Notes under the pieces: model-generated
Seen by the model: the letters and a program-made list of their open reading frames with translations, nothing else
The model's database searches: none
Told to the model about the DNA's origin: nothing
Origin: Solirubrobacter deserti
GTDB taxonomy: Bacteria > Actinomycetota > Thermoleophilia > Solirubrobacterales > Solirubrobacteraceae
NCBI RefSeq assembly: GCF_027587175.1
Contig: NZ_JAPCID010000006.1
Coordinates: forward strand, 1 to 64,000
Length of the DNA: 64,000 nucleotides
Reading direction: 5' to 3'
In this document: in pieces, positions 36,086 to 49,664 of the stretch
Layout of the letters: the number at the start of each line of letters is the position of its first letter
How positions within the stretch are numbered: position 1 is the stretch's first letter
Made by a program: the position numbers and the translations under genes

Positions 36086-36259
36086 ATGAACGCCGGGCTG
36101 TCCACCTCGCCTCATCAGTATTCGGTACCGCAGGTGCGCGAAGTCGCGCCTCCCGCCAAGCCGGAAGCCGAGCCGCGCCGGCCGCTCACGCAGCGTGAGC
36201 TGGTCGCCATGTCGCTGCTCGCCTGCCCGGATCGCGGGGGCGTCGCCAAGCGCATTTGA
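36086..36259 (+). CDS. 57-residue protein with HQYxxPQVxE motif
   Basis: The protein begins MNAGLSTSPHQYSVPQVREV, followed by a Pro/Ala/Glu linker (APPAKPEAEPRRP), a helix (LTQRELVAMSLLACPDR) and GGVAKRI. The stretch HQYSVPQVREV matches HQYKLPQVKEI of the 17-residue ORF at 49611 in 7 of 11 positions, with three conservative changes. It has its own promoter and no Shine-Dalgarno, consistent with leaderless translation. I recognise no family. The N-terminal motif followed by a variable part could fit a peptide precursor or an adaptor. Confidence 0.55.
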   Translation: MNAGLSTSPHQYSVPQVREVAPPAKPEAEPRRPLTQRELVAMSLLACPDRGGVAKRI

Positions 36260-36269
36260 CGCTTCCGGA

Positions 36270-36746
36270 TCATCCCACGGGCGCCGCGGCGATCGCGCGC
36301 TCGACGTCCTCGACGTCGATCGGGCGGGCCTGCTCGCGCAGCAGCCGCCGCAGCCGTGGACCGATCCGCGTCGGGCCGTCCGAGGCGACCGGCGTCCTCG
36401 CCTGCCCGGCGAGCACGCGCATGACGTGCTCGACCTCGACGCTGTCCGCGCCCTCGCGCGCGGCCTCCGAGCGCGCCAGCGCCAGCACGCGCAGCATCCG
36501 CGGCGTGTAGGTCGGCGGCTCGATCGTCAACCCGCGGTAGCGCCGGTGCGCGGCCTGCCGGGAGATGCCGACCTCGCGCGCGATCGCGGCGAAGCTCTCG
36601 CCCTGGTCGAGGGCGCGGCGGACCTGCTCGTGCTCGTAGGTGTCGAGTGCGGCGCGCAGGTGGGTGAGCGCGTTCAGGGCGTCGAGCGGGTCCGAAGCGG
36701 TGAGCGCGCGCTGCAGCTCGGTGAGGATCCGTGCGGCGGTGGACAT
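36270..36746 (-). CDS. HTH protein with Clp_N-like repeat
   Basis: The 158-residue protein combines an N-terminal helical region (1-45), a helix-turn-helix (QGESFAAIAREVGISRQAAHRRYR, about 52-75, split here as SFAAIAREVGISRQAAHRR) and a segment like one half of the Clp N-terminal repeat (TPRMLRVLALARSEAAREG, then EVEHVMRVL, about 85-115). The Clp_N fold normally binds substrates or adaptors of ClpA/ClpC. The combination suggests a DNA-binding protein that itself reads a ClpC ligand. ATG 36746; its end faces the small HQY gene, 10 bp away. Confidence 0.7.
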   Translation of the reverse strand: MSTAARILTELQRALTASDPLDALNALTHLRAALDTYEHEQVRRALDQGESFAAIAREVGISRQAAHRRYRGLTIEPPTYTPRMLRVLALARSEAAREGADSVEVEHVMRVLAGQARTPVASDGPTRIGPRLRRLLREQARPIDVEDVERAIAAAPVG

Positions 36747-36828
36747 CAGGGCGCCCAGGGTCGCCGCCGCCGGGCGACCCTTCCAGCCGCGCCGTCGGCG
36801 CGGCAACGTCTGCGCGCGGACGTCCGAG

Positions 36829-37719
36829 CTACGCGGGCGTGCCGCCGAGGACCTTGATCGTCTCGCCGGCGATGTAGCTGGACTCCTGCGAGGCGAGGAA
36901 CACGTAGGCGGGGGAGAGCTCGACGGGCTGCGCCGCACGCTTGATCGGGGCCTGCTCGCCGAAGGAGGCGACCTTGTCCGGCGGCATCGTCGCCGGGATC
37001 AGCGGGGTCCACACCGGGCCGGGCGCGACGCCGTTGACGCGGATGCCCTGCTCGATCAACAGCTGGCCGAGGTTCTTGGTGAAGTTGACGATCGCACCCT
37101 TGGTGGCGGCGTAGGCCAGCAGGTTCGGCGAGGGCTGGAACGCCTGCTCGGAGGCGGTGTTGATGATCGCCGAGCCGGGCTCCATGTGCTTGAGCGCGGC
37201 CTTGGTGGTGCGGAAGAACGAGATGATGTTCGTGTTGAACGTGCGGACGATCTCCTCGTCGCTGAGGTCGTCGAGGCCCTCGTGCGACATCTGGAACGCC
37301 ACGTTGTTGACCAGGATGTCGATGCCACCGAGCTCGGCCACGGTGCGCTCGACGATCTCCGTGCAAAAGCTCGCGTCGGTGAGGTCCCCCGCCAGGGCCA
37401 GGCCCTTGCGGCCCGCGTCCTTGACGACGGCGAGCGTCTGCGTCGCGTCGGACTCCTCCTCAGGCAGGTGCGTGATGACGACGTCCGCGCCCTCACGCGC
37501 GAACGCGAGCGCCACCGCCCGGCCGATGCCCGAGTCGCCGCCCGTGATCAGCGCCTTGCGTCCCTCCAGCCGGCCGCTGCCGCGGTAGCTGTCCTCGCCG
37601 TAGTCGGGCTTCGGCGTCATGTCGGACTCCAGGCCCGGATGCTCGAGCTGCTGCTCGGGCTGCTCGGGCTGCGGGAACTGCGTGGTGGGGTCCTGCTTGG
37701 TGGTCTGATCCTGGGCCAT
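36829..37719 (-). CDS. Short-chain dehydrogenase (YdaD/YhdF general-stress type)
   Basis: The 296-residue SDR has a 45-residue polar N-terminal extension (QPEQPEQQLEHPG), then the cofactor motif TGGDSGIGRAVA (about 59), NNVAFQ, the catalytic Ser in INTASEQ and YxxxK in YAATKG (about 215). The extension plus TGGDSGIG is typical of the Bacillus general stress SDR group. Substrate unknown. Only 17 bp separate its ATG from that of the divergent aldo/keto reductase. Confidence 0.9.
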   Translation of the reverse strand: MAQDQTTKQDPTTQFPQPEQPEQQLEHPGLESDMTPKPDYGEDSYRGSGRLEGRKALITGGDSGIGRAVALAFAREGADVVITHLPEEESDATQTLAVVKDAGRKGLALAGDLTDASFCTEIVERTVAELGGIDILVNNVAFQMSHEGLDDLSDEEIVRTFNTNIISFFRTTKAALKHMEPGSAIINTASEQAFQPSPNLLAYAATKGAIVNFTKNLGQLLIEQGIRVNGVAPGPVWTPLIPATMPPDKVASFGEQAPIKRAAQPVELSPAYVFLASQESSYIAGETIKVLGGTPA

Positions 37720-37736
37720 GTGGGGAGGCTGCCCCC

Positions 37737-48291: not shown

Positions 48292-48344
48292 GCCGCGGAA
48301 ACCTAAGGGGTCCTCGGCGGCGACGCTCTCATCACGCGCTCACG

Positions 48345-48350
48345 GGGTAG
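48345..48350 (+). promoter_or_regulatory. GGGTAG box 9 nt before glgC
   Basis: GGGTAG followed by exactly 9 nt and GTG 48360. No GTTT-like -35 is visible. Confidence 0.4.
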
Positions 48351-48359
48351 AGAGCGAGG

Positions 48360-49535
48360 GTGCCCCGTATCAAGATCCTCGTGCTGATCCTCGCCGGCGG
48401 TGCCGGCGGCCGTCTGGAACTGCTCACGCACACGCGTGCCAAGCCCGCCGTACCGTTCGCGGGCACTCACCGGCTGATCGATTTCCCGCTCAGCAACTGC
48501 CTGAACTCGAACATCGACGACGTCTGGATCTCGCAGCAGTTCAACCCGGTCTCGCTGACCGACCACCTCGCCAACGGGCGCCCGTGGGACCTGGACCGTA
48601 CGTCCGGCGGGCTGCTCGTCCTGCACCCGCGGCAGGGCAACGAGGGCGGCGAGGGCTTCCAGGAGGGCACGGGCGAGGCGCTCTGGAGCCAGGCCGAGCT
48701 GATCCGCGAGTTCAACCCGTCGGCGCTGGTCGTGCTCTCCGCGGACGCCGTCTACAAGCTCGACTACCGCATGCTCGCGGAAGAGCACTGCGAGGCGGGC
48801 AAGGCGGTCACGATGGTCACGACCGAGGTCGAGCCCGACGACGCGGACCGCTACGGCGTCGTGCAGGTCGACGGGGACCGGGTGACCGAGTACGTCTACA
48901 AGCCCGACGGGGCCAAGGGCAACCTGGTCAGCAACGAGGTCTTCGTCTTCACGCCCGAGCCCGTGCTGGACGCCCTCGACGAGCTCGTGCGCGAACGCGG
49001 GCAGGACGACCTCGAGGACATCGGCCACTACCTGCTGCCCCGGCTGGTGGACGCGGGGGAGGCGCGGTCGCACCGCTTCGGCGACTACTGGCGCGACGTC
49101 GGCAAGATCGACGCGTTCCACGCCTGCCACATGGAGCTTGTCGGCGACGAGCCGCCGATCGACCTCGACGATCCGGCGTGGCCGATCCTCACGCGGGCGA
49201 TCGCGAACCGCGCCTCGGCGCAGGTGGGCTCCTCGGCGACGGTGCAGTCCTCGCTGATCGCGCCGGGCGCGAAGGTGGACGGCGACGTGAGCGGGAGCGT
49301 GCTCGGGCGCGGCGTCGTGGTCGAGAAGGGCGCGACCGTGCGCGACTCCGTGCTGATGCCGGGCGCCGTGGTGCGGGCGGGAGCGACGGTCACGCGGGCG
49401 ATCATCGACGACCATGTGGACGTGCGCGCGGACGTCGGCGAGGCCGGCGGCGAGATCGCGCTCGTGGGCCTGCACGCGACAGTTGACGAAAGCTTGCCCG
49501 CCGGCGCGCGCTTCCCGCAGGTGGAAGACGACTGA
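48360..49535 (+). CDS. glgC: Glucose-1-phosphate adenylyltransferase
   Basis: The 391-residue enzyme makes ADP-glucose for glycogen. It has the nucleotidyltransferase start LVLILAGGAGGRLELLTHTR (about 7-26), AKPAVPFAGTHRLIDFPLSN (about 27-46), YGVVQVDGDRV, the sugar-binding DYWRDVGKIDAFHACHM (about 241-257) and a C-terminal left-handed beta-helix of hexapeptide repeats (about 290-370). The canonical GEGKRL loop reads GAGGRL here. GTG start. The GH31 glucosidase elsewhere in the window could act in the same pathway. Confidence 0.92.
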   Translation: MPRIKILVLILAGGAGGRLELLTHTRAKPAVPFAGTHRLIDFPLSNCLNSNIDDVWISQQFNPVSLTDHLANGRPWDLDRTSGGLLVLHPRQGNEGGEGFQEGTGEALWSQAELIREFNPSALVVLSADAVYKLDYRMLAEEHCEAGKAVTMVTTEVEPDDADRYGVVQVDGDRVTEYVYKPDGAKGNLVSNEVFVFTPEPVLDALDELVRERGQDDLEDIGHYLLPRLVDAGEARSHRFGDYWRDVGKIDAFHACHMELVGDEPPIDLDDPAWPILTRAIANRASAQVGSSATVQSSLIAPGAKVDGDVSGSVLGRGVVVEKGATVRDSVLMPGAVVRAGATVTRAIIDDHVDVRADVGEAGGEIALVGLHATVDESLPAGARFPQVEDD

Positions 49536-49610
49536 TCGTCGAAAACGGGGCGGAGAACTTCCTACCTCCGGGTGATGCCGCAAGGCCCTGCACCTGGGAA
49601 GGTTTTGGTC

Positions 49611-49664
49611 ATGGCCCACCAGTACAAGCTTCCGCAGGTCAAAGAGATCAAGCCGGGCCGCTAG
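49611..49664 (+). CDS. 17-residue peptide MAHQYKLPQVKEIKPGR
   Basis: A tiny ORF with a strong Shine-Dalgarno (GGGAAGG at 49596-49602, 8 nt before the ATG) encodes MAHQYKLPQVKEIKPGR. Its centre HQYKLPQVKEI matches HQYSVPQVREV in the 57-residue ORF at 36086. The ribosome site plus the shared motif argue that both are translated. It lies alone between glgC and the LigD-type polymerase, in the 161-bp gap that otherwise shows nothing. Function unknown; candidates are a signalling peptide, a leader-like regulator or an adaptor ligand. Confidence 0.5.
   Translation: MAHQYKLPQVKEIKPGR

What the first reader, a model, noticed from the sequence alone, without database searches (positions are those of the whole stretch)
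36086..49664. Two tiny ORFs share an HQYxxPQVxE motif
The 57-codon ORF at 36086-36259 contains HQYSVPQVREV and the 17-codon ORF at 49611-49664 contains HQYKLPQVKEI: 7 of 11 identical, the rest mostly conservative (V/L, R/K, V/I). The first has a TTGACC-N17-TAGTTT promoter 9 nt before its ATG; the second has GGGAAGG 8 nt before its ATG. Two independent expression signals plus a shared motif suggest an undescribed microprotein family. The short one is almost only the motif; the long one adds a linker and helix, so the motif may be a docking or recognition element.
Basis: partly seen in the sequence, partly recalled or inferred. Interest (0 to 1): 0.72.

Follow-up and report, generated by a model that had tools for sequence, protein, structure and literature searches.

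The report
Tiny conserved proteins in Solirubrobacter bacteria
Two overlooked mini-genes in this soil bacterium look like real, conserved tiny proteins, and the longer one belongs to an apparently unnamed family with a shared helical tail whose job is still unknown.

Summary
Both ORFs are as described and are each other's best match among 573 ORFs of the window. Both are conserved in Solirubrobacter: the 57-codon ORF in five of six genus genomes; the 17-codon ORF directly after a glgC-like gene in all four genus genomes found to carry that gene. Substitutions favour third codon positions. Both are very probably translated.

The wider family is not defined by HQYxxPQVxE, which as a DNA pattern stays in the genus. 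It is defined by a C-terminal helix, [ST]QR[ED]LVxASLLxxP, found in short ORFs across Solirubrobacteraceae, including two further paralogues in this genome. Eight of 22 representatives also carry a PxV[RT]E-like motif before the helix. The 17-mer has only that motif. Pfam, NCBIfam, PHROGs, PDB, phages and plasmids gave no meaningful match.

Best reading: cytosolic microproteins that bind a partner through two short motifs, the 57-mer perhaps read from a leaderless mRNA. The binding role is inferred. One unannotated 180-aa protein encoded next to members in two genera is a candidate partner.

The parts
36010..36032 (+). Conserved block TTTGGACGnnnGTCnnACnnAAG upstream of the 57-codon ORF, possible operator or upstream promoter element
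   Evidence: Conserved in the 5 orthologous loci aligned; the only exact match in the window, one other match with 3 mismatches, 0.24 expected at up to 3 mismatches
36048..36076 (+). Promoter-like TTGACC-N17-TAGTTT; a start point at A36083, 3 nt before ATG, is inferred
   Evidence: Spacing and both hexamers kept in 5 of 5 orthologous loci; no match by the generic scan
36086..36259 (+). 57-codon ORF, microprotein with N-terminal motif and C-terminal helix
   Evidence: Orthologues in G188, G189, G192, G191; codon-position bias
36113..36145 (+). N-terminal motif HQYSVPQVREV (residues 10-20)
   Evidence: Sequence; PxV[RKT][EP] in 8 of 22 representatives
36191..36223 (+). C-terminal helix QRELVAMSLLA (residues 36-46)
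   Evidence: Family profile; AlphaFold helix 36-46
48360..49535 (+). glgC-like sugar-phosphate nucleotidylyltransferase gene directly upstream of the 17-codon ORF
   Evidence: PF00483; TIGR02091 and NF003670 matched below their curated cut-offs
49596..49602 (+). Ribosome-binding-site-like GGGAAGG
   Evidence: Conserved in 4 of 4 genus genomes with the ORF
49611..49664 (+). 17-codon ORF MAHQYKLPQVKEIKPGR
   Evidence: Same place in G188, G189, G192; 41 of 54 ORF columns identical in the four, 6 of 60 after the stop
49617..49649 (+). Shared motif HQYKLPQVKEI in the 17-mer (residues 3-13)
   Evidence: Sequence; similarity test

Best explanation
The 57-mer is one of several paralogous cytosolic microproteins of Solirubrobacteraceae. 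Each is a short, largely unstructured peptide with a constant C-terminal helix (QR[ED]LVxASLLxxP) and, in part of the family, an N-terminal extended motif ([YF]xxPxV[RT]E[ILV] or MxTPxV[RT]E). Shown: conservation, codon-level selection, paralogy, predicted architecture. Inferred: the helix docks on a common protein partner in trans and the variable N-terminus tunes specificity or strength, so the peptides act as small adaptors or inhibitors. The 57-mer is probably read from a leaderless or nearly leaderless mRNA. The 17-mer, made from its own ribosome-binding site after glgC, carries only the N-terminal motif and may occupy that motif's site alone. The partner is unknown; a conserved 180-aa neighbour without Pfam match is a candidate.
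For: Orthologues and purifying selection for both ORFs. Helix-only profile: 21 matches at E<=1e-5 in 15 of 145 family genomes, 4 of the 21 not among the profile's rows; nothing below 3.3e-3 outside the family in 396 phylum genomes. A 38-40-aa paralogue in 6 of 6 genus genomes, with an invariant helix and synonymous changes in the four compared. N-motif in 8 of 22 representatives, 0.31 expected by shuffling, 0 of 5,000 shuffles reaching 8. AlphaFold: one helix 36-46, extended motif at pLDDT 84 for residues 11-20. No unusual RNA folding. The 180-aa neighbour lies beside members in G188, S. phytolaccae, S. taibaiensis and, in another genus, G111.
Against: No partner or activity shown. No annotated partner gene accompanies the family; the 180-aa neighbour is absent from this window and from the S. 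soli locus searched. 14 of 22 representatives lack the N-motif, and the regex was set after viewing. 11 of 25 loci sit within 60 nt upstream of a co-directional gene, which would also fit a cis role there. The helix has a low hydrophobic moment by the Eisenberg-type scale used, 0.10-0.36, and pTM is 0.32. For the 17-mer, 3 of 6 genome pairs are not significant for codon bias.
Confidence: 0.43

Rival explanations
1. RiPP precursors: YxxPxV is a leader motif read by an RRE (PqqD-like) domain as in lasso peptides (YxxPxL), and the C-terminal part is processed.
For: YSVPQV and YKLPQV fit the YxxPxL leader motif described in PMC10368454 (passages). PF05402 matches occur in 6 of 6 genus genomes.
Against: The two PF05402 places of this genome are on other contigs (C378, C409). 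7 of the 15 genomes with helix matches at E<=1e-5 have no PF05402 match (G057, G060, G080, G081, G112, G172, G175). The conserved part is the C-terminal helix, and most members lack the Tyr. PF05402 does not cover all RREs, so this is not decisive.
Confidence: 0.07
2. Cis-acting leader ORFs that regulate the next gene by translation coupling or attenuation.
For: 11 of 25 loci lie within 60 nt upstream of a co-directional gene, some with overlapping stop and start.
Against: The downstream genes differ, while the amino acids of the helix are kept; the 57-mer and 38-mer ORFs of this genome face a convergent gene. Gene calls there were heuristic.
Confidence: 0.1
3. The 57-mer and 17-mer are both real but unrelated; the shared motif is convergent or chance.
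Against: Score 53, 0 of 20,000 shuffles, mutual best matches with a clear gap to the next.
Confidence: 0.27
4. Conserved RNA or DNA regulatory elements rather than proteins.
For: DNA upstream of both ORFs is also conserved.
Against: Third-position bias; fold z-scores -0.01 and 0.58; no Rfam match at either place.
Confidence: 0.04

Closest known systems
Leaderless and short-ORF small proteins of mycobacteria (PMC4633059, PMC9094748; search listing and start of abstract only)
   Same: Short actinobacterial ORFs, some on leaderless mRNAs, missed by annotation
   Different: No homology was tested; here one helix-defined paralogous family with cross-genus conservation
Lasso-peptide precursors (YxxPxL leader motif, PMC10368454, passages read)
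   Same: YxxPxV in the N-terminal part
   Different: No adjacent RRE gene; conserved helix instead of a core peptide; PqqD missing in 7 of 15 carrier genomes
Small peptide inhibitors of large proteins such as MciZ (FtsZ) or Sda (recalled, from no call)
   Same: What this may work like: a short peptide binding a large partner by a strand-like stretch and a helix
   Different: No sequence link known to me; partner unknown; several paralogues per genome

Membership tests
QRELVxASLL microprotein family (defined here) | C-terminal helix QR[ED]LVxASLL within a short ORF | tested here: met
   57-mer: E 3.3e-10 with the helix profile, of which it is a row; helix 36-46 predicted
QRELVxASLL microprotein family (defined here) | C-terminal helix in the 17-mer | tested here: not met
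   The 17-mer ends after the motif; it shares only the N-terminal motif
QRELVxASLL microprotein family (defined here) | Codon-level purifying selection | tested here: met
   57-mer: variable columns 7, 8, 25 by codon position; 17-mer: 3, 2, 7; 38-mer: 10, 1, 19
Lasso peptide or other RRE-dependent RiPP precursor | YxxPxL-type leader motif | tested here: met
   YSVPQV and YKLPQV by sequence against the motif in PMC10368454, with V for L; not kept in most of the wider family
Lasso peptide or other RRE-dependent RiPP precursor | RRE gene beside the precursor | tested here: not met
   PF05402 in this genome only at C378 and C409, the window being on C93
Lasso peptide or other RRE-dependent RiPP precursor | Leader cleavage and modified core | not testable with these tools
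   Needs mass spectrometry
Leaderless small protein | mRNA 5' end at or next to the start codon | tested here: inconclusive
   Promoter-like hexamers at constant distance in 5 of 5 loci; no transcript data; generic scan negative

The most novel reading that the evidence does not exclude
A peptide control layer special to Solirubrobacteraceae: several paralogous two-motif microproteins compete for one conserved hub protein through the QRELVxASLL helix, with N-termini, and motif-only peptides such as the 17-mer after glgC, setting specificity.
Probability: 0.2. Interest if true: 0.8.

Novelty: new variant of a known kind. Interest (0 to 1): 0.56.

Why it matters
It adds an apparently unnamed conserved microprotein family in a poorly studied actinobacterial lineage, with one associated peptide of only 16-17 codons under codon-level selection, near the lower limit for a gene. 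Because the constant helix and the variable N-terminus are separable, the family offers a clean bait for finding its partner. If the paralogues share one hub, it would expose an unknown control point.

Tried and rejected
RiPP precursor reading: lowered because PF05402 is missing in 7 of 15 carrier genomes and is on other contigs in this one. I read G000:C378 as lasso-like and G190:C1 as PQQ biosynthesis; that is recall, not a profile result. RNA element: no Rfam match at the ORFs, ordinary folding. Phage or plasmid origin: no match.

Neighbours: my first view was that nothing recurs beside different members. On rechecking, this needed mending: a 180-aa protein recurs across two genera; response-regulator-like genes lie near 4 of 25 loci (L114, L115, L135, L146; only L114 tested by profile); AMP-ligase-like genes lie near L093 and L095. 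Response regulators are usually numerous in such genomes (recalled), so I take that as possible chance; not tested.

Rows dropped or not counted: class search gave 7 genomes outside the family at E 3e-4 to 7e-3; six were looked at and showed no helix motif, G364 was not looked at. G063 (271-aa frame) and G188:C1:297984 were judged unrelated. Of the 22 representatives I left out G058:C144 and G064 (start unclear). In one search only 17 candidates per genome were scored.

The loose HQY pattern with 3 mismatches was uninformative: 209-308 hits per genome, fewer than its control. Promoter and terminator scans found nothing at either ORF. A lipobox reading of LLAC was dropped on sequence alone.

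Full report
Observation. Both ORFs are at the stated coordinates with the stated peptides and signals. They are mutual best matches among 573 ORFs of at least 15 aa in the window (score 53; next 42 and 35), and 0 of 20,000 shuffled 17-mers reach 53. What counts is the independent conservation of each ORF.

57-codon ORF. A 57-aa query over 145 family genomes found orthologues in G188 (88% identity), G189 (88%), G192 (82%) and G191 (67%), so 5 of 6 genus genomes counting the window's own; G190 had only a match at E 0.22. A scan of the genome collection with one 10-residue pattern gave 23 stretches, of which 5 were confirmed: S. phytolaccae (L147), S. taibaiensis (L148), S. soli twice (L149 and the more distant L150) and an actinobacterial MAG (L151). 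Over the first 50 codons of G000, G188, G189 and G192 the variable columns by codon position are 7, 8 and 25. In five of six pairs, random placement of the same base changes gave as few changed codons in at most 0.03% of trials; the sixth pair (6 substitutions) gave 8%.

17-codon ORF. Four of six genus genomes have a close relative of the glgC-like gene at E<=1e-20, and all four carry the short ORF directly after it: MAHQYKLPQVKEIKPGR (G000, G188), MAHQYKLPKVKEIKPGR (G192), MHSYKLPQVKEIKPGR (G189). A pattern search with up to 3 mismatches found it in the same four and in neither of the other two. With up to 2 mismatches it was found in 3 of 398 class genomes, the three of this genus in that draw. 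41 of 54 ORF columns are identical in all four against 6 of 60 after the stop; upstream conservation is also notable, 40 of 60 and 21 of 40 columns. Variable columns by codon position are 3, 2 and 7. The three pairs with the most diverged genome, G189, give P 0.0004 to 0.0035; the other three, with 2 to 4 substitutions, are not significant (0.06 to 0.19). An upstream in-frame start seen in three genomes is out of frame in G192, which favours the start behind the conserved GGGAAGG.

Wider family. Profile searches led from the orthologues to other short ORFs with the same C-terminal stretch. A helix-only profile of 17 rows over 145 family genomes gave matches at E<=1 in 123 genomes, mostly chance, but 21 matches at E<=1e-5 in 15 genomes, 4 of them not among its rows: G058:C144 (3.2e-9), G060:C1:5240792 (5.2e-7), G064 (7.2e-7), G172 (5.2e-6). 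In 396 genomes of the phylum the extended profile gave nothing outside the family below 3.3e-3. As far as tested the family is confined to Solirubrobacteraceae; the class search with the first alignment left seven weak outside rows (best 3.1e-4), treated as chance. Within the genus there are at least two further sets. A 38-40-aa type (MTSPQPQPKLPQLVAAALAKRTAHDRQRELVRASLLCR in the window's genome) occurs in 6 of 6 genus genomes, with variable columns 10, 1 and 19 by codon position and an invariant helix in the four compared. A 30-35-aa type ending SQRELVALSLLLCGR in this genome was seen in G000, G189, G192 and, more loosely, G190.

Architecture. In 22 representatives, one per group with starts chosen by me, PxV[RKT][EP] precedes the helix in 8; shuffled N-parts give 0.31 on average, at most 4, and never 8 in 5,000 trials. 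The regex was set after viewing. Of eight representatives that first appeared in the helix-only search, three have the motif (G190:C4, G111, G060:5240792); the other five motif carriers came from searches that included the N-part. AlphaFold on a 22-row alignment gives one helix, residues 36-46, and an extended motif (residues 11-20 at pLDDT 84), mean pLDDT 75, pTM 0.32.

Expression signals. The second S. soli-type copy reads TTGAAA-N17-TAGGGT-N7-ATG, which would be exactly leaderless. A further conserved block lies upstream. These are inferences from sequence; the generic scan did not call the promoter. Some other members have a ribosome-binding-site-like stretch instead, for example L114.

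Context. By a heuristic gene call, 11 of 25 loci lie within 60 nt upstream of a co-directional gene. One neighbour recurs across genera: a protein of about 180 aa, 72-74% identical between G111 and three Solirubrobacter genomes, lies beside the microprotein ORF in G188, S. phytolaccae, S. taibaiensis and G111. It is convergent in G111 and upstream in the others, with a dapB-like gene in between in S. phytolaccae. It has no Pfam match and was not found in this window or in the S. soli loci held. It is a candidate partner, no more. Response-regulator-like genes lie near 4 of 25 loci.

Known families. No match in Pfam or NCBIfam for 6 of 6 members scanned, none in the PDB for the 57-mer, and only weak ones for two profiles (best E 1.1 and 0.31). 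PHROGs gave two weak matches, each to one of 18 members (E 0.14 and 0.32). No match in phages or plasmids. Paper searches for Solirubrobacter with small proteins (2 papers), Solirubrobacterales with small protein (1) and Thermoleophilia with microprotein (0) listed nothing on such a family, judged by titles and starts of abstracts; the library is open-access only.

Mechanism. Shown: two conserved short coding sequences, one in a helix-defined family. Inferred: two-motif binding in trans to an unknown partner. The RiPP reading has one real point in favour (YxxPxV) but lacks PF05402 in 7 of 15 carrier genomes. Kinship of the 17-mer with the 57-mer is likely but rests on one short motif.

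Noticed in passing
G000:C1:1139206 (L137) and G000:C399:469243 (L142), outside the window: Two further paralogues in the same genome, 38 and 34 aa, with the QRELV helix.
   Followed up: yes
L147:8637-9179, L064:6079-6600, L148:8646-9179, L115:753-1256: A protein of about 180 aa without Pfam match, 72-74% identical between genera, encoded beside members of the microprotein family.
   Followed up: partly
L137, L138, L139, L178, upstream of the 38-aa type: A conserved upstream block resembling GGCCAGCCCC...TTGRCCAGSTAGGCCTAT, seen by eye in four genus genomes; possible regulatory element.
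   Followed up: no
L142, L134, L136 (30-35-aa type): In two of three genomes the start codon lies in a short inverted repeat CATGGG...CCCATG, with CATGG...CCATG in the third.
   Followed up: no
window 59158-59281 (-): Cobalamin riboswitch (RF00174, 38.7 bits).
   Followed up: no
window 39355-41417 (+): A heme-oxygenase-like diiron protein (PF14518) overlapping a carboxylate-amine ligase gene (PF04107, TIGR02050).
   Followed up: no
window 49697-50596 (+): A stand-alone LigD-type primase-polymerase gene (TIGR02778) follows the 17-codon ORF here; the sequence after the ORF differs in the relatives.
   Followed up: no
window 35396-35980 (-): PF06475 glycolipid-binding-like gene upstream of the 57-codon ORF, where S. 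phytolaccae has a dapB-like gene.
   Followed up: partly
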